A DNA stretch of 44,136 nucleotides from an uncultured bacterium (GTDB lineage Bacteria > Armatimonadota > HRBIN16): positions 1 to 44,136 of the forward strand of contig CALJAP010000013.1 in NCBI GenBank assembly GCA_938027655.1, written 5' to 3'. The notes below the pieces were generated by a model. It was not told where the DNA came from. It made no database searches and saw only the letters and a list, made by a program, of their open reading frames with translations. Shown here in pieces: positions 31,021 through 38,363 of the stretch (position 1 is its first letter; each line of letters starts with the position of its first letter). Position numbers and translations under genes: made by a program.

Positions 31021-31980
31021 CTATACAGCAGCGCTCTGTCGCATGTTGACCAGAGCCAGCGCCTCGCGAGCGATGTCGTCTGCCGTTAAGCGGTATTTCC
31101 GCATCAGCGCGTCCGGTGCACCGGACTCGGCGTAGTCGTACAACCCGATGAAGCGCATCGGCACTGGATAACGCTTTGCCGCCGCCATCGCCACCTGTGA
31201 CGCGAGACCGGTGTAGAGCAGGTGCTCTTCTGCCACCACGATGGCTCCCGTCTCGCGGGCTGCCTTTTCAATCGCTTCTTCGTCCAGCGGGCGCACGGTA
31301 TGCATGTCCAGCACTCGAGCCGAGACCCCTTGCTGTTCCAGCAGGTCGGCGGCATCCAGCGCGGCTGCCACCATCAACCCGTTGGCAACGAGCGTGACAT
31401 CATGCCCATTGCGCAGGGTAATGGCTCTGCCGATTTGAAAATCAGGGCATCCGTTTTCGTACACCACAGGTGCTTTGGGACGCCCAACACGAATGTAAAC
31501 CGGTCCAACGTGCGCTGCAGCCGCCCGTACCGCCGCCCGGGTTTCCGCACCGTCGGCGGGGACCATCACCACAAAGCCGGGCAGGGACAGCGCCAGCCCG
31601 ATGTCTTCATGCCCCATCTGCGACACGCCGTCCTCGCCGATGGAGATACCCCCATGTGAACCGACTATCTTCACGTTGTTTCCGCTGTACGCCACCGCCA
31701 GACGCATCTGGTCAAACGCTTTGCACATCACAAAACAGGCAAAGCTGGACGCAAAGGCGATTTTGCCCGATGCTGCCAGCCCCGCCGCGATGCCCACCAT
31801 GTTCGCCTCAGCGATGCCCACGTTGAAGAAGCGGTCGGGGAATTCCTGTGCAAAGTACTTGGTCATCGTGGACTTGGAGAGGTCGCCGTCCAGCACCACG
31901 ATGTTTGGGTTCTCTCGCCCCAGTTCTGCCAGCGCTTTACCGTACGCTTCACGGGTGGCTTCACCCAGTGGTCTTGCCAT
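31021..31980 (-). CDS. Transketolase, C-terminal subunit
   Basis: This 319-residue protein is the C-terminal half (pyrimidine-binding and C domains) of a split transketolase, which moves two-carbon units in the pentose phosphate pathway in the cytosol. Motifs include GDLSKSTMTKYFAQ, FFNVGIAEANMVGIAAGLA, VKIVGSHGGISIGEDGVSQMGHEDIG and VVAEEHLLYTGLA. Such halves (transketolase-like C-terminal) are common in bacteria and archaea that lack the fused form. The ATG at 31980 is 8 bases behind AGGAGG. The GTG at 31986 would be too close. It lies 29 bases after the N-terminal half. The gap to the protease (30856-31020) shows no convincing feature. Confidence 0.93.
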   Translation of the reverse strand: MARPLGEATREAYGKALAELGRENPNIVVLDGDLSKSTMTKYFAQEFPDRFFNVGIAEANMVGIAAGLAASGKIAFASSFACFVMCKAFDQMRLAVAYSGNNVKIVGSHGGISIGEDGVSQMGHEDIGLALSLPGFVVMVPADGAETRAAVRAAAAHVGPVYIRVGRPKAPVVYENGCPDFQIGRAITLRNGHDVTLVANGLMVAAALDAADLLEQQGVSARVLDMHTVRPLDEEAIEKAARETGAIVVAEEHLLYTGLASQVAMAAAKRYPVPMRFIGLYDYAESGAPDALMRKYRLTADDIAREALALVNMRQSAAV

Positions 31981-32009
31981 TGCCACTTCCTCCTATCTCC
32001 TCCTGCTCA

Positions 32010-32840
32010 TCAGTCGGCGAGTTCCGCCAGCGCTTGTTCCAGTTCAGCCTGCGTCGGCGCCTTGCCGTGAAACTCGTTGTTGTTTTCCATGAACGAGACG
32101 CCCTTGCCCTTGACGGTGTGCGCCACGATGATAGAGGGCTGTTGGCGCGGCTCCCTGGCCCAGCGCAGGGCATCCAGAATCTGGCGCATATCGTGTCCGT
32201 CGATCTCACGTACCGTCCAGCCGAAAGCCTCCCATTTGGCGACGACCGGCTCAATGCTCATAATCTCGCCGATGGCGCCGTCCAGCTGATACCGGTTATA
32301 GTCCAGAATAGCGGTCAGGTTGCCCACGCGAAAGTGCGAGGCTGCCATCGCCGCCTCCCAAACCTGCCCTTCTTCCGATTCACCGTCGCCAATCATGACG
32401 TACACGTGATACCTTCTGTTGTCTAGCCGCGCTGCCAACGCCATGCCCAGACCGATGCTCAACCCCTGTCCCAAACTGCCGGTAGAGGCTTCCAGCGCAG
32501 GGATGTCTTTGACGGAGGGGTGCCCCTGCATGGGGGTATCGATTTTGCGCAGTTGCCACAACCATTCTTCGGGAATGAACCCCGCCTCGGCAAGCACCGC
32601 GTAGAGCGCGGGAACCGCGTGTCCCTTGCTGAGGATAAAACGGTCGCGGTCTTCCCAGCGCGGATTGCGAGGGTTATACCGCATCACGTTGCCGAAGAAG
32701 AGCGCGGTGAGGATGTCTATGGCGGAAAGGGAACCGCCGGGGTGCCCGCTCCCTGCGATTGCCAGCATCTTCACAATGTGCCGACGCAGCTTGCGAGCGG
32801 TTCGTTCCAGCTGTTCGAGAGAAACGTCCGTTGTAACCAA
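32010..32840 (-). CDS. Transketolase, N-terminal subunit
   Basis: This 276-residue thiamine-diphosphate-binding half of the split transketolase has the key motifs AGSGHPGGSLSAIDILTALFF, LSKGHAVPALYAVLAEAG, HPSVKDIPALEASTGSLGQGLS and the ThDP motif GDGESEEGQVWEAAMAA...NRYQLDG. The start is put at TTG 32840 because AGGAGG (plus-strand 32849-32854) stands 8 bases upstream and the predicted transcription start is near 32867. The longer GTG start at 32858 has no ribosome site. It is the first gene of the pair. The promoter is part of the symmetric arrangement with the HAD gene. Confidence 0.93.
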   Translation of the reverse strand: MVTTDVSLEQLERTARKLRRHIVKMLAIAGSGHPGGSLSAIDILTALFFGNVMRYNPRNPRWEDRDRFILSKGHAVPALYAVLAEAGFIPEEWLWQLRKIDTPMQGHPSVKDIPALEASTGSLGQGLSIGLGMALAARLDNRRYHVYVMIGDGESEEGQVWEAAMAASHFRVGNLTAILDYNRYQLDGAIGEIMSIEPVVAKWEAFGWTVREIDGHDMRQILDALRWAREPRQQPSIIVAHTVKGKGVSFMENNNEFHGKAPTQAELEQALAELAD

Positions 32841-32873
32841 CGCACCGACCTCCTGCACAAAGGTTCGAAGGTT

Positions 32874-32903
32874 ATTCTATCCCGACAGGGGCGGTGTTGT
32901 CAA
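32874..32903 (-). promoter_or_regulatory. Promoter of the transketolase genes
   Basis: On the minus strand, TTGACA (32898-32903), an 18-base spacer and TAGAAT (32874-32879) give a near-consensus sigma-70 promoter. Predicted transcription begins near 32867, 27 bases before the TTG start and just ahead of its AGGAGG. Confidence 0.75.
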
Positions 32904-32918
32904 ACGTGCAGTTGACAA
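32897..32918. promoter_or_regulatory. Palindrome spanning the two divergent -35 boxes
   Basis: TTGTCAA (32897-32903) and TTGACAA (32912-32918) are exact inverted copies with 8 bases between. The arms contain the -35 boxes of the transketolase and HAD promoters, read in opposite directions. One regulator bound here, or mutual interference between polymerases, could coordinate the two transcripts. Confidence 0.6.
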
Positions 32919-32941
32919 CGCACCGCTTTTGCCCGTATAAT
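32912..32941 (+). promoter_or_regulatory. Consensus promoter of the HAD phosphatase gene
   Basis: TTGACA (32912-32917), an 18-base spacer and TATAAT (32936-32941) match both boxes exactly. The ATG at 32981 is about 33 bases past the predicted start. It is the strongest promoter seen in the window. Confidence 0.8.
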
Positions 32942-32980: not shown

Positions 32981-33721
32981 ATGAGGAGTGCATTGACAGC
33001 GACACAGCCACCTTTTCGTTGCGCGCTGTTCGATATAGACGGTACTCTGGTCGACACCGTGGAGTTAATCGTCCGCGCTTTAGACCATACTTTCCGCAAA
33101 CATCTGGGAGTACAGATTTCGAGAGACGAGTTGCGTCGAACGATCGGGCTTCCGTTGCACAAGCAAGTGCGCCTGTTCGACCACCTGGTGGACTTTGCGC
33201 CGGACCACCGCGCGATGGAAGAGGACGAAATCGCCTATTATGAGGCGCACAAGCATCTGGAAGAGGTGATTCCTGAGGCAGTGGATGCGCTCAAGGAGGC
33301 GAAACGCGCGGGGTTGCGAACGGCTCTGGTGACCTCGAAGAACAGGATAGAGCTGGACACGTTCCTGCCACGTTTGAACGTGAACGGCTGGGTAGATGTA
33401 GTAGTCAGCGCATCCGACGTAGCTCGTCCGAAACCTGCGCCCGATCCGGTGCTGGTAGCTCTGCAGAGGCTGGGCGCGCTACCACAGGAAGCAGTTTTCG
33501 TGGGCGATACGGTGTACGACATCCAGTGTGCCCGAGAGGCTGGAGTGAAGGTGATAGCGGTCGGTTGGGGCGCACACCCGATAGAGGTGTTGCGTGCAGA
33601 ATCGCCCGACTGGCTGTTTGAGGAACCTGCTCAGCTCCGGGAGTTTTTCCGGTTGCTCGCACAGCGCGCCGAGCCGGAGGTGGCACGTGTCGGCATCCCC
33701 ACGGCGAACGAAATGCCGTGA
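32981..33721 (+). CDS. HAD-family phosphatase (phosphoglycolate phosphatase/PpaX-like)
   Basis: This 246-residue HAD-superfamily hydrolase has motif I FDIDGTLVDT (Asp18, Asp20), a helical cap (HTFRKHLGVQIS through ALKEAKRAG), motif II ALVTSKN, motif III (RPKPAPDPVL) and motif IV (VFVGDTVYDIQCA). The pattern matches phosphoglycolate phosphatase and PpaX/Gph-type enzymes that act on small phosphates; the exact substrate is open. The ATG at 32981 is used; TTG at 32993 is a rival because AGGAG lies just before it. The next gene starts 24 bases after its stop, so both share the strong promoter. Confidence 0.87.
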   Translation: MRSALTATQPPFRCALFDIDGTLVDTVELIVRALDHTFRKHLGVQISRDELRRTIGLPLHKQVRLFDHLVDFAPDHRAMEEDEIAYYEAHKHLEEVIPEAVDALKEAKRAGLRTALVTSKNRIELDTFLPRLNVNGWVDVVVSASDVARPKPAPDPVLVALQRLGALPQEAVFVGDTVYDIQCAREAGVKVIAVGWGAHPIEVLRAESPDWLFEEPAQLREFFRLLAQRAEPEVARVGIPTANEMP

Positions 33722-33745: not shown

Positions 33746-36466
33746 ATGCCACCACGTCGACGTCGCTCCGCGCCGGAGAGCGCAGAGTTATCGGCTGAAT
33801 CATCGCAAACGCCAGAAACAACCAGCCAGCCAGGCGACAGCACTGCTGTCTCTCCAGAAGAGGTTTTATCTGAGCCGGCGCCCGCCGAGCAACCTGCAAC
33901 CGCCACACGCCGCCGCCGCAGCTCTACCCGCAGACGGGCAAAGCGGAAGGAGGCGGCGGCAGAAACGGCTGCCGAACCACCTGTGGAACCTTCAGATGAG
34001 GCGGCAGGGGCTGTTACAGAAGCTCCCATCGAAGAGACACCTGCCTCGACACCGCCCGACGAGGCTGTGGAGCAGGGAACCCTTCTCGAACCGGTGTTGC
34101 ACGAGGTAGAGGTAGTCGAGCGGGAAGAAGTGGTGGAACCCGAAGTGCCTCAGCCTGCGCCGGGCGAGGTTGTCACGCCTCCCACCCGTCGTCGGCGGCG
34201 CGCTCGCCGCGCAGCAACGGTGGAAACCGCTGCCGAAGAGGAGGTCGCGGAACAACGCAGGCGCAAACGCGAGGGGGTTCGCCTCGGAATCCGGCAGGGT
34301 CACCCGGAGATAATTATCGATGCCGAGCCGGTCGTGCCCCTTTTCTTCTTTGGCAACATCGACTCGGCTGCGGCGGAGCGCAGGGTATGCGAGCAAATTC
34401 GGCAGGCGGCATCCGCGGGCGTGCATCTGCATGCCCTGTTGCTGGAGCTGCCCGTGTCCGTTGCGATGGTCTCCTCCAGCGTTAACGAGGCATTGCGCCT
34501 CTTGCATCTGGTGCGCCAGCATGACCCGCAGGGCTACGTGATGTTTCGGGTGGTATTCAGTCCGCCGCCCGACTGGCAGAAGATGTACCCCGAAGCGATG
34601 ACCACCTACGCCGATGGCTCCACCGGTGATCCCTCGTTCGCTTCCGACCGCTACTGGCAGGAGGCAGAAGCCGCTTTGACCCTGCTGGTGCGCCAGCTGG
34701 AGGCAGCAGAGGAATCGCGCACCATCCTGGGGTACCATCTGGACTGCCGTGAGTGGTTCACCGAGTACCAGCGTGGCTACGACTACAGCCCGGCAGCACA
34801 AGAGGCGTTCCGGCAATGGCTGCGCGGGCGGTACAAAAACGACGTGGTCGCGCTTCGTGCGGCGTGGCATGATGGCTCTGTGACGTTCGCCAGCGCCAGC
34901 GTGCCCACCTACAAAGGCGATTCCATCCCTGCTACGGTGCTATACGAACACCGTAAGGGGCAGAGATATGTAGATTATCTACGCTTTGCCTCCGAGACCA
35001 TCGCCCGGCGGATCGTCGCCCTCTCGCGTAGCGTGAAGAAGAACTGCGAAAACCGTCGCCTGGTGGCGGTGTCGTACGGCTATATCATGGACTTTCCGGT
35101 GCCCCATAGCGGACACCTCGCACTATCGGAGGTGTTATCGGCACAAAGCATTGACCTGATATGCGCACCGGTGTCGTATCGCGACCGGCGCCCTGCACAG
35201 CCGGGGAGCGTGCCTGTGCCGGTAGCTTCGGTGCGCCTGCACGGCAAACTGTTTGTACTGGAGGACGACACCAAACCCCACAACGCGCACACTGATACTC
35301 CTGACGATTATAACCCCCGCTGCCCAGACGCCGAGTCGACACACCACGTGCGTCTGCGCAACGCAACGACCGCTCTCGTACACCATGCTGGCATCTCCTG
35401 GATGGACCTGTGGGGCGAAGGATGGGTCAGCAGTAGGGAAATCTGGCAACAGGCGCAGAAACTATCCGCCCTCTACCTAGCGCACATTCGCCAACGATTA
35501 CCTGAGGCTCCCGAAGTGGCGGTGATTGTGGATGAGCGAAGCCTCACACGCATCCAGTCACCCAAGGCACTGCTGGAACCGTTGCTGATACAACAGCAAG
35601 AGGTGCTTGCACGAGCGGGTATGCATTACGGCATCTACCTGCAGAGTGACCTGGTGCGCAAAGCATTTCCCGACGCGAAGATGTACCTCTTCCTCAACCC
35701 AATACAGGTGGACTCTGAGGTGCGTGAGGCGATTCGCGAACGACTCCAGCGCGATGGAAAGACGCTGGTTTGGCTGTACGCGGCGGCGCTGTACGACGAA
35801 AACGGCTACACCCCTGACGGACCGCGCGATGTGGCGGGAATAGCCATCAAGACACAACCATGGAACAGCGAAATGGGCTCTATCATTAGCAACGACCGAC
35901 ACCCCATTTCGGAGCGGTTGCGCAATAAGCAGGTGGGCGTGCGTGAGCGGGTAAATCCCTCGTTCTACGTGCTGGACGAAAAAGCGGTTGTACTGGGTGA
36001 GTACATCCAGACCGGCTTGCCGTCTATAGCGGTCAGAGATATGGGCACGTGGCGTTCGGTGTTCATCGGGGAACGCCAGCTGAACATCGACCTGCTTCGT
36101 GGCTTATGTCGGTATGCCGGGGTGCATGTGTGGTCGCAAAGTAGCGACGTGGTACGGGTGGCGCCGCCTTTTCTAGCGATACACTCGGTGGGTGACGGTG
36201 TGGTGCACCTGCAGTTTCCCCAGAGACAGGTGGTTTACGACCTCACAGAGGAGCGATTACTTGCGGAGGACGCCGGCGGTCTGCGCCTGAACATGCGCAT
36301 GGGGCAGAGTGGGTTGTACGCGGTGGGCACATATGAGCAGCTCACCGCGTTGGGTATTCCGCTGCCCGAGCGAAGCGCGGAGACGACACCGGAATCTGCC
36401 TCTGGGACAACAGGCAAGAGGCGGCGCAGGCGCGGCGGGAAGAAACACCGCAAACGCAAGGAGTAG
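33746..36466 (+). CDS. Large glycosidase-like (GH42-type) protein with arginine-rich tails
   Basis: This 906-residue protein is unusual. The first about 185 residues are disordered and alternate acidic/Pro/Ala stretches with Arg clusters (PPRRRRSAP, TRRRRSSTRRRAKRK, TRRRRRARRA, QRRRKREG). The middle (about 190-620) looks like the TIM barrel of GH42/beta-galactosidase-like proteins (VVPLFFFGNIDS, ILGYHLDCREWFTEYQ, ISWMDLWGEGW). The C-terminal part resembles the beta-galactosidase trimerisation region (GTWRSVFIGERQLNIDLLRGL, YAGVHVWSQ). The end is polybasic (GKRRRRRGGKKHRKRKE). There is no signal peptide, so it is cytosolic. It may bind RNA or DNA through the tails. Catalytic activity is unproven. 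Confidence 0.75.
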   Translation: MPPRRRRSAPESAELSAESSQTPETTSQPGDSTAVSPEEVLSEPAPAEQPATATRRRRSSTRRRAKRKEAAAETAAEPPVEPSDEAAGAVTEAPIEETPASTPPDEAVEQGTLLEPVLHEVEVVEREEVVEPEVPQPAPGEVVTPPTRRRRRARRAATVETAAEEEVAEQRRRKREGVRLGIRQGHPEIIIDAEPVVPLFFFGNIDSAAAERRVCEQIRQAASAGVHLHALLLELPVSVAMVSSSVNEALRLLHLVRQHDPQGYVMFRVVFSPPPDWQKMYPEAMTTYADGSTGDPSFASDRYWQEAEAALTLLVRQLEAAEESRTILGYHLDCREWFTEYQRGYDYSPAAQEAFRQWLRGRYKNDVVALRAAWHDGSVTFASASVPTYKGDSIPATVLYEHRKGQRYVDYLRFASETIARRIVALSRSVKKNCENRRLVAVSYGYIMDFPVPHSGHLALSEVLSAQSIDLICAPVSYRDRRPAQPGSVPVPVASVRLHGKLFVLEDDTKPHNAHTDTPDDYNPRCPDAESTHHVRLRNATTALVHHAGISWMDLWGEGWVSSREIWQQAQKLSALYLAHIRQRLPEAPEVAVIVDERSLTRIQSPKALLEPLLIQQQEVLARAGMHYGIYLQSDLVRKAFPDAKMYLFLNPIQVDSEVREAIRERLQRDGKTLVWLYAAALYDENGYTPDGPRDVAGIAIKTQPWNSEMGSIISNDRHPISERLRNKQVGVRERVNPSFYVLDEKAVVLGEYIQTGLPSIAVRDMGTWRSVFIGERQLNIDLLRGLCRYAGVHVWSQSSDVVRVAPPFLAIHSVGDGVVHLQFPQRQVVYDLTEERLLAEDAGGLRLNMRMGQSGLYAVGTYEQLTALGIPLPERSAETTPESASGTTGKRRRRRGGKKHRKRKE

Positions 36467-36502: not shown

Positions 36503-37252
36503 TTAAGGGTTCGGGTCCGGGTAACGCCCGTTCCACCAACGGTTATCCGCATCCAGCTCAGCAGTTCTCATCCATCTGGCGTGCCCGTCCACAAAAGCGA
36601 TGTTTGCACCTCCGTTGTGACGAGGCGCAAGCGGTGCCCGCACGCCGGGTGTTCCTCCAGCGGAGTAGCGGTTGGGTCCGCCTCCTGCTCGGCACGGAGG
36701 TAATACCGGTGGATCGATGCTGTAGCCATGGTTACCCAAACATTGTATGTTGGTGTAGTCGGCGTCTGTTGGCTCATCATTATCGCACCATTTTGTGCCC
36801 GTGCCCTGGCTGTCGGCAACTGCGATGGTGGAAGCCGGTGTTTCTATCTGCGACTCGGTCACCGGCACGTTGTAGCAGTTAGCGCGCGAGTTCCCCAGAT
36901 ACTGGTAGTTGTAGCCGTAGCCCATATTACGCCCCGGTTTTAAGTGGGATGCGGAAGGGCAAACAAGCAGCGGCTGGCTGCGTGTATACGGCTCCAGCAG
37001 ATTGAACCACCTCAGCTGGACACCTGCAGTGACATACGAGAAAGCGGGGAACGCTTCGTAATCCTGCGCGTAGAGCGCAATGGCAAGGCCAATCTGCCTC
37101 AGGTTGCTCAGGCAGGCGGTTTGCCTCGCCTTCTCGCGCGCCTGCGCGAAGACCGGAAAGAGTATCGCTGCCAGTATCGCGATGATCGCGATAACGACGA
37201 GCAGTTCAATAAGCGTAAACGCGAGCTTGTTTGCAACGCGCGTGGTTCGCAT
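36503..37252 (-). CDS. Type IV-like prepilin with DUF1559 / H-X9-DG domain
   Basis: This 249-residue exported protein carries a type IV prepilin leader ([21 protein letters not shown]) with a long hydrophobic helix. The position before the cleavage site is Ala (LA/FTLIE) where Gly is usual. The C-terminal domain has the H-X9-DG signature ([12 protein letters not shown]) and the DUF1559 pattern ([23 protein letters not shown]), typical of Planctomycetota and Armatimonadota. These pseudopilins are thought to form surface or secretion filaments. The ATG at 37252 has AAAGGAGG upstream. A good promoter (37286-37314) precedes it. Confidence 0.92.
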
Positions 37253-37569
37253 CACTGTCCTCCTTTTAGGATGATTTTTGATGTGATTATACATCACGAG
37301 AAAATAATTTTCAATATCCTAAAACAAAATTTTCACTATAATTAAAAATTGATAATGAATCTTATTCTTACTAGATAACCCAGTAGCACGTCAAACTTCG
37401 ATCTCTGGATATGCATCACTTCGCCACACCTGTTTCTCCTCTCCCATACCCGCCATTTCAATCATGAGGAGACGACACGAACGCTTTTCACTCTATCTTG
37501 TCACGCTGAGCGTCAGCAAAACGGATCATCCCATCGGTGCATCGAGTTCGGTCGCGACATATCACCAGG
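37253..37569. other. AT-rich gap with the prepilin promoter and a repeat
   Basis: The first part (37260-37370) is much more AT-rich than the rest of the window and holds the prepilin promoter. The second part carries a segment, about 37504-37536 (GCTGAGCGTCAGCAAAA then ATCATCCCATC), that resembles 12078-12110 and is a dispersed repeat. No gene of its own was seen apart from unconvincing short frames. Confidence 0.5.
37286..37314 (-). promoter_or_regulatory. Promoter of the prepilin gene
   Basis: Read on the minus strand, TTGAAA (37309-37314), a 17-base spacer and a perfect TATAAT (37286-37291) stand about 34 bases before the start at 37252. The flanks are AT-rich, like an UP element. Confidence 0.7.
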
Positions 37570-38034
37570 TTGACTCCGCAAGCGGAATGGTGTATTCTAC
37601 ACGAGGGGGGGACAGGCAGGACGAGCACGCACGATGCTCGGTGGATACAAAGGCTTAGTCACTTTTCGAAGGCACTATCCCAGCTGAGCAGGTTTATCGA
37701 GAAAGGCGAACTGAACGAGTTTGAAAAGCAGGGGCTTATCAAAGCCTTCGAGTATACCGACGAGCTGGCATGGAATGTGCTGAAGGACTACCTAGAAGCG
37801 CAGGGCGAAACGAGCATCCATGGCAGCCGCGATGCCTTTCGCCTGGCGTTCCAGCGCGGCATTATCGAGGACGGCGATATCTGGATGGATATGGTGCGCA
37901 GCCGAACGCTCACAGCACACACCCACAACGAGGACACTGCTGAACAGGTCGTCCGCGACATCGTTGGACGGTATTATGGCATGTTCGTCAGCCTGTTTCG
38001 CACAATGGACACGCTGAGAGAAGAGCAGAAGTGA
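37570..38034 (+). CDS. HI0074-type HEPN toxin-like protein of an MNT/HEPN module
   Basis: HEPN proteins of this group (nucleotidyltransferase substrate-binding, HI0074 family) are toxins or partners paired with a minimal nucleotidyltransferase. The conserved part begins with DARWIQRLSHFSKALSQL at 37633 and is all-helical, with FEYTDELAWNVLKDYLEAQG and the HEPN active-site motif R-X4-H (RTLTAH). It lacks a good start codon: no ATG is in frame near the conserved beginning. The best in-frame upstream start is TTG at 37570. A run of seven G (37605-37611) could hide a frameshift, since ATG 37587 in another frame would join the gene if one base were removed. The following MNT gene overlaps it by GTGA. 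Confidence 0.75.
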   Translation: MTPQAEWCILHEGGTGRTSTHDARWIQRLSHFSKALSQLSRFIEKGELNEFEKQGLIKAFEYTDELAWNVLKDYLEAQGETSIHGSRDAFRLAFQRGIIEDGDIWMDMVRSRTLTAHTHNEDTAEQVVRDIVGRYYGMFVSLFRTMDTLREEQK

Positions 38035-38363
38035 GCGCCCGTTTTGGCTTGCAAGAGTCGGTTATCCAACAAATTTGTGCGGTGCTCGCGAAGTATCCGC
38101 AGGTGCAAAAGGCGGTGCTGTATGGCTCGCGGGCGAAGGGGACATACAAAAACGGTTCCGATATCGACCTGACACTGGTCGGTGGTGAGGACCTGAGCCT
38201 GCACATACTTTACCGCATCGCCGACGAGCTAGACGACCTGTTGTTACCCTACACGTTCGACCTCTCCATTTTCAGCCACATCAGCGACCCCGATGTGGTA
38301 GAGCACATCCGGCGTGTCGGCGTAACCCTCTACGAAAGGGCAGAGGCTCACCCCTCTGCGTGA
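38031..38363 (+). CDS. MNT-type minimal nucleotidyltransferase antitoxin
   Basis: This 110-residue protein is a minimal nucleotidyltransferase of the pol-beta superfamily. The signature YGSRAKG (Ser33) and the acidic residues Asp44 and Asp46 (GSDIDL) and Asp77 (FDLSIF) are complete. In HEPN/MNT modules the MNT protein modifies the HEPN partner, for example by AMPylation, and neutralises it. The start is GTG at 38031, overlapping the HEPN stop as GTGA. A helical segment (LSLHILYRIADELDDLL) connects the motifs. The C-terminal codons overlap an 11-base inverted repeat. Confidence 0.87.
   Translation: MSARFGLQESVIQQICAVLAKYPQVQKAVLYGSRAKGTYKNGSDIDLTLVGGEDLSLHILYRIADELDDLLLPYTFDLSIFSHISDPDVVEHIRRVGVTLYERAEAHPSA

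What the first reader, a model, noticed from the sequence alone, without database searches (positions are those of the whole stretch)
33746..36466. Cytosolic glycosidase-like protein with repeated arginine clusters at both ends
A TIM-barrel/trimerisation-like core of GH42 type is flanked by about 185 residues of acidic/Pro/Ala sequence with at least four RRRR-type clusters, and by a polybasic C-terminal tail. There is no signal peptide. Basic low-complexity tails of this kind are known from RNA-binding proteins such as RNase E, not from beta-galactosidases. It might be an RNA- or nucleoid-associated protein that reuses a glycosidase scaffold. It shares a consensus promoter with a HAD phosphatase.
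Basis: partly seen in the sequence, partly recalled or inferred. Interest (0 to 1): 0.6.

Follow-up and report, generated by a model that had tools for sequence, protein, structure and literature searches.

The report
Glycosidase wearing RNase E-like tails
A bacterial gene encodes a sugar-cutting-type enzyme with intact catalytic residues, flanked at both ends by floppy arginine-studded tails of the sort seen on RNA-degrading enzymes; the combination is old, single-copy and conserved across a large part of one bacterial phylum, which suggests an enzyme tethered to RNA, DNA or another polyanion inside the cell.

Summary
The 906-aa ORF has a disordered acidic/Pro/Ala N-tail (aa 1-176) with six R/K clusters (0.5 expected in shuffles), a folded core (aa 176-870, pLDDT 91) and a polybasic C-tail. 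The core is a complete GH42-like three-domain fold. Both putative catalytic glutamates are conserved (E336 57/57, E506 56/57), so it looks like an enzyme, not a dead scaffold. The tails are no local oddity: 57 orthologue cores sit on tailed proteins, form one clade (support 100), and belong to a single-copy gene found in about 158 of 291 Armatimonadota genomes, some only 1.5 Mb. Twenty-two untailed relatives fall outside; many have signal peptides. No ORF in 0.8 Mb sampled from a relative has such a tail. The tails resemble RNase E scaffold tails in make-up and charge-block order. RNase E/G of this genus has no tail, while several lineages without the tailed glycosidase put such tails on RNase E/G; this complementarity is suggestive, not significant at family level. 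Best reading: a cytosolic GH42-like glycosidase tethered to RNA/nucleoid or a condensate. Substrate and RNA binding are untested. The HAD link is a shared promoter and old adjacency, not strict co-occurrence.

The parts
33746..34273 (+). N-terminal disordered tail, aa 1-176: acidic/Pro/Ala spacers with six R/K clusters
34271..36355 (+). Folded core, aa 176-870: GH42-like TIM barrel, trimerisation-type Rossmann domain, C-terminal beta domain
34751..34753 (+). E336, putative acid/base after barrel strand 4 (followed by invariant W337), 57/57 conserved
35261..35263 (+). E506, putative nucleophile at the end of barrel strand 7 (motif E-[DE]-D), 56/57 conserved
36377..36463 (+). C-terminal disordered polybasic tail, aa 878-906 (...GKRRRRRGGKKHRKRKE)
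32981..33721 (+). HAD-superfamily phosphatase (PpaX/Gph-like), probable start ATG 32981; probably the same transcription unit
32912..32941 (+). Consensus sigma-70 promoter TTGACA-18-TATAAT ahead of HAD and the tailed glycosidase

Best explanation
It is an active, probably homotrimeric, cytosolic glycosidase or transglycosidase of the GH42-type fold. Two intrinsically disordered, arginine-cluster, alternating-charge tails hold it on an intracellular polyanion, most likely RNA (transcripts, ribosomes) or the nucleoid, or concentrate it in a condensate. Shown here: the (predicted) fold, conserved catalytic residues, predicted disorder and charge-block order of the tails, conservation and single origin of tails plus core, rarity of such tails in a relative's proteome, tail resemblance to RNase E tails in the same phylum. 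Inferred: that the enzyme is active, that it trimerises (six tails and some twenty or more basic clusters per particle), that the tails bind nucleic acid, and that localisation matters for a housekeeping role. The substrate is unknown.
For: Full-length GH42 fold match, TM 0.66-0.72; model pLDDT 91 and pTM 0.92. E336 57/57, E506 56/57; W337, H457, D508, D554 invariant. 57 cores belong to tailed proteins, one clade, SH-aLRT 100; 22 untailed relatives outside. Single copy in about 158 of 291 genomes, including 1.5-Mb genomes. Tail disorder. Charge blocks above shuffles in all 54 N-tails measured, z 3.5-13.5, similar to RNase E tails of the phylum. RRRR 167 observed against 3.2 expected in the tails. 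No comparable tail among about 650 ORFs in 0.8 Mb of a relative. Alternating charge patches in the Caulobacter RNase E tail are described as enabling multivalent interactions with RNA (PMC12510024); an Arg-run nonapeptide of cyanobacterial RNase E binds PNPase (cited in PMC12489471).
Against: No direct evidence of RNA or DNA binding. The N-tail is near neutral or slightly acidic overall. The Asn that precedes the acid/base in clan GH-A (N140 in 1kwg) is missing, so activity or substrate may differ from GH42. Conserved neighbours (HAD, panD, hisF, fabF, metK) are metabolic rather than RNA genes.
Confidence: 0.5

Rival explanations
1. It is primarily an RNA-decay or ribonucleoprotein scaffold: the tails took over the RNase E scaffold role (PNPase/RNA recruitment, condensate formation) in lineages whose RNase E/G is tail-less, and the trimeric glycosidase core mainly provides oligomerisation or a metabolic input.
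For: RNase E/G of the window genus ends right after its catalytic/S1 core. Of 34 genomes with the tailed glycosidase none has a long (80 aa or more) Arg-cluster RNase E tail; 10 of 35 without it do. Arg runs bind PNPase in cyanobacteria, and PNPase is present.
Against: At family level 0 of 7 against 6 of about 22 is not significant (own arithmetic, one-sided p about 0.16). Many lineages have neither tail. f13 has both a tailed glycosidase and a short Arg-rich RNase E tail. The genome also has RNase Y. Catalytic residues are conserved.
Confidence: 0.17
2. The tails bind a non-nucleic polyanion (polyphosphate, an anionic polymer or acidic glycan, inner-membrane lipid head groups) and bring the glycosidase to its substrate.
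For: Arg clusters are generic polyanion binders (general knowledge); the core is a carbohydrate enzyme; no nucleic-acid domain in Pfam.
Against: No signal peptide or membrane segment, so only cytosolic partners are reachable; the closest look-alikes are RNase E tails.
Confidence: 0.2
3. The tails are solubility or entropic-bristle appendages, or drifting low complexity, without a specific partner.
For: Primary sequence of the tails diverges quickly and is hardly alignable between families.
Against: Kept throughout a deep clade, at both ends, with Arg clusters far above shuffles and a recurring RRRRGGRGR-type C-terminal block; absent from paralogues in the same genomes; rare in the proteome; extra C-terminal [VI]x[FW]R[KR] motif in Fimbriimonadia.
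Confidence: 0.08

Closest known systems
GH42 beta-galactosidases (1kwg, 3tts, 4uoz, 8ibr)
   Same: Three-domain fold over the whole core; Glu after strand 4 and Glu at strand 7
   Different: About 15% identity; no Asn before the acid/base; long disordered charged tails at both ends; housekeeping-like distribution
Untailed GH42-like paralogues of Armatimonadota and Verrucomicrobia (e.g. G000:C183, L193, L204)
   Same: About 30% identity over the whole core, same GEW and E-D-D motifs
   Different: No tails; often signal peptides or extra N-terminal domains; motif GQNTGEW with three more residues
RNase E C-terminal scaffold regions (Caulobacter, cyanobacteria, and Armatimonadota lineages f3, f19, f29, f31)
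   Same: Disordered, Pro/Ala/Glu-rich, alternating charge blocks, Arg runs incl. RRRRRGGR
   Different: Attached to a ribonuclease, C-terminal only; no homology to the core here
Ignavibacterium album beta-1,2-glucosyltransferase (7vkw)
   Same: Similar overall fold (TM 0.66)
   Different: About 11% identity; tails not compared

Membership tests
GH42 (PF02449) | Profile match above curated cut-off | tested here: met
   38.2 bits against 21, but only aa 272-439; 29 of 54 members match at E 0.01
GH42 (PF02449) | TIM barrel + trimerisation domain + C-terminal beta domain | tested here: met
   Foldseek, TM 0.66-0.72 over about 750 columns
GH42 (PF02449) | Acid/base Glu after strand 4 and nucleophile Glu at strand 7 | tested here: met
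   E336 57/57 and E506 56/57, placed by the model's strands; geometry not measured
GH42 (PF02449) | Asn directly before the acid/base (clan GH-A, N140 of 1kwg) | tested here: not met
   Residue 335 is mostly G/R/A (N in one of 57), 334 is mostly R/H/C/Y; no NE motif as a rule
GH42 (PF02449) | Beta-galactosidase activity, homotrimer | not testable with these tools
   needs biochemistry
RNase E/G | Catalytic RNase E/G domain | tested here: not met
   No match in Pfam or NCBIfam; the genome's RNase E/G is another gene
RNase E-type condensate scaffold (works like) | Disordered region with alternating charge blocks and Arg runs | tested here: met
   compared with PMC12510024
RNase E-type condensate scaffold (works like) | RNA binding, condensate formation, PNPase recruitment | not testable with these tools
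   needs experiment

The most novel reading that the evidence does not exclude
In a large clade of Armatimonadota a conserved glycoside hydrolase, not RNase E, is the tail-bearing organiser of a ribonucleoprotein or nucleoid-associated body, joining an intact sugar-active site (perhaps acting on glycosylated RNA or a nucleotide-linked glycan) to an RNase E-like charge-block scaffold.
Probability: 0.15. Interest if true: 0.9.

Novelty: new variant of a known kind. Interest (0 to 1): 0.62.

Why it matters
Glycosidases are normally exported or plain soluble sugar-metabolism enzymes. A single-copy, phylum-deep, cytosolic one that always carries RNase E-like tails would be a conserved link between carbohydrate chemistry and RNA/nucleoid organisation, or a new kind of bacterial condensate component. 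It also gives a natural system for asking whether charge-block tails move between unrelated enzymes while keeping their scaffold role.

Tried and rejected
(1) Chance low complexity or frame error: rejected (shuffles, mixed codons, conservation in orthologues). (2) Dead glycosidase scaffold: not supported given invariant catalytic residues; one member (L025) has Leu at 506. (3) A common tail type in these genomes: not found in 0.8 Mb of G029, and the only in-frame RRRRGG[KR] in a long ORF of the own genome is this gene. (4) HAD as obligate partner: HAD orthologues (E below 1e-40) also occur without the tailed gene (G014, G025, G028, G041) and unlinked in several lineages; adjacency holds in 18 of 57 loci. 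(5) Viral relatives: none. (7) No paper found on Armatimonadota RNase E or on a glycosidase with such tails in the held library.

Full report
Check of the observation. The ORF at 33746-36466 encodes 906 aa behind a good ribosome-binding site. Residues 1-176 are acidic/Pro/Ala-rich with six clusters of three or more R/K, against 0.5 expected when the same residues are shuffled (z 7.8); the C-terminus is GKRRRRRGGKKHRKRKE. The clusters are written with mixed Arg codons. AlphaFold2 on the full-length alignment leaves 1-174 and 878-906 below pLDDT 50 without secondary structure and folds the rest. A perfect 12/12 sigma-70 consensus with 18-nt spacing lies at 32912-32941 ahead of the HAD gene; the HAD probably starts at ATG 32981, 24 nt separate its stop from the ORF's start, and no terminator-like site lies between.

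What the core is. Pfam gives GH42 for aa 272-439 only (38.2 bits, cut-off 21); NCBIfam gives nothing. The AF2 model of the core from 54 relatives has pLDDT 91.2 and pTM 0.92. Foldseek against the PDB places it on whole GH42 beta-galactosidases (E 2.7e-26, TM 0.66-0.72 over about 750 columns, about 15% identity), then on the Ignavibacterium beta-1,2-glucosyltransferase and GH164. E336-W337, three residues after barrel strand 4, is invariant in 57 tailed relatives; E506, at the end of strand 7, is conserved in 56 of 57 (Leu in L025); H457, D508, D554 and others are invariant, and untailed relatives share them. The Asn before the acid/base of clan GH-A enzymes is absent as a rule. I conclude a probably active, divergent GH42-like enzyme of unknown substrate; the carboxylate geometry was not measured.

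How old and how specific the tails are. In 101 related genomes and one GTDB-wide contig scan the near relatives (35-96% identity) carry an N-tail (about 100-450 aa where held) and a C-tail, usually with a block such as RRRRRGGRGR, while the tail sequences themselves hardly align. On a tree the 57 tailed cores form one group with support 100 and the 22 untailed relatives lie outside, so the tails need only one gain. The 20 untailed Armatimonadota paralogues examined, including copies in the window genus, have no basic tails; many have signal peptides (judged by eye) or extra N-terminal domains. The tailed gene is single-copy and present in about 158 of 291 genomes of the phylum (160 pass the threshold, of which at least one, G067, has only an untailed relative), with open frames of about 840-1470 aa where complete, and remains in 1.5-Mb genomes. 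In 0.8 Mb sampled evenly from a relative with a single contig (G029) no ORF of about 650 has a comparable tail, and in the own genome the RRRRGG[KR] motif occurs in frame in a long ORF only here.

What the tails resemble. All 54 N-tails measured have charge segregated into blocks beyond shuffles (z 3.5-13.5), with values for Arg content, P/A content and cluster density overlapping those of RNase E tails in the same phylum. RNase E of Caulobacter has such alternating charge patches that allow multivalent contacts with RNA clients (PMC12510024), and the cyanobacterial RNase E binds PNPase through RRRRRRSSA (stated in PMC12489471). In the window genus RNase E/G has no tail at all. Among 34 genomes with the tailed glycosidase none has a long Arg-cluster RNase E tail; among 35 without it, 10 do (families f3, f5, f19, f28, f29, f31). 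By family this is 0 of 7 against 6 of about 22, p about 0.16 by my own arithmetic, so it is a lead, not a result. Family f13 has both a tailed glycosidase and a short (43-60 aa) Arg-rich RNase E tail. In Fimbriimonadia the C-tails end in a further motif [VI]x[FW]R[KR] ([VIL]x[FW]R: 21 found, 3.8 expected in all tails), the kind of short motif that could recruit a partner.

Surroundings. The HAD phosphatase (PpaX/Gph-like) lies directly upstream in 18 of 57 loci, in the window genus and in Fimbriimonadia (there panD-HAD-this gene-hisF), but elsewhere the two are unlinked and the HAD also exists without the glycosidase. The other neighbours are housekeeping genes that change between lineages (fabF/fabG/metK, MtaB-like, era, polyprenyl synthase; named by eye from their sequences). 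PNPase and RNase Y are encoded in the own genome.

Mechanism. The parsimonious reading is an active cytosolic glycosidase held on RNA, nucleoid or another polyanion, or concentrated in a condensate, by multivalent tails (GH42 enzymes are typically trimers, so up to six tails per particle; established for the family, not tested here). The scaffold-takeover reading (RNA-decay body organised by a glycosidase) is more novel but rests on a non-significant pattern. Polyphosphate, other anionic polymers or lipids remain possible partners. A purely passive tail is unlikely given the conservation.

Verdict.

Noticed in passing
G011, G013, G030, G038, G043, G053, G062, G071, G079, G084 (RNase E/G loci): RNase E/G of several Armatimonadota lineages carries 80-330 aa Arg-cluster tails, while most others, including the window genus, have none: repeated gain or loss of the RNase E scaffold tail within a phylum.
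   Followed up: partly
L040, L043, L046, L048, L049, L052, L026, L030, L025 (C-termini): Conserved short motif [VI]x[FW]R[KR] at the extreme C-terminus of tailed glycosidases of Fimbriimonadia, sometimes repeated in the N-tail.
   Followed up: partly
window 37537-38363: Two short overlapping ORFs look by eye like a HEPN/MNT pair (a GSRAKG..SDIDL nucleotidyltransferase motif in the second).
   Followed up: no
window 32874-32941: Back-to-back near-perfect promoters drive the HAD gene (12/12) and the divergent transketolase N-half (11/12).
   Followed up: no
window 31021-32858 (-): Transketolase N-terminal domain is a separate ORF (32010-32858), followed by a 321-aa ORF at 31021-31986 that may be the other half (not searched).
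   Followed up: no
window 36503-37297 (-): DUF1559/pilin-like protein (N-methylation motif) convergent with the tailed glycosidase.
   Followed up: no
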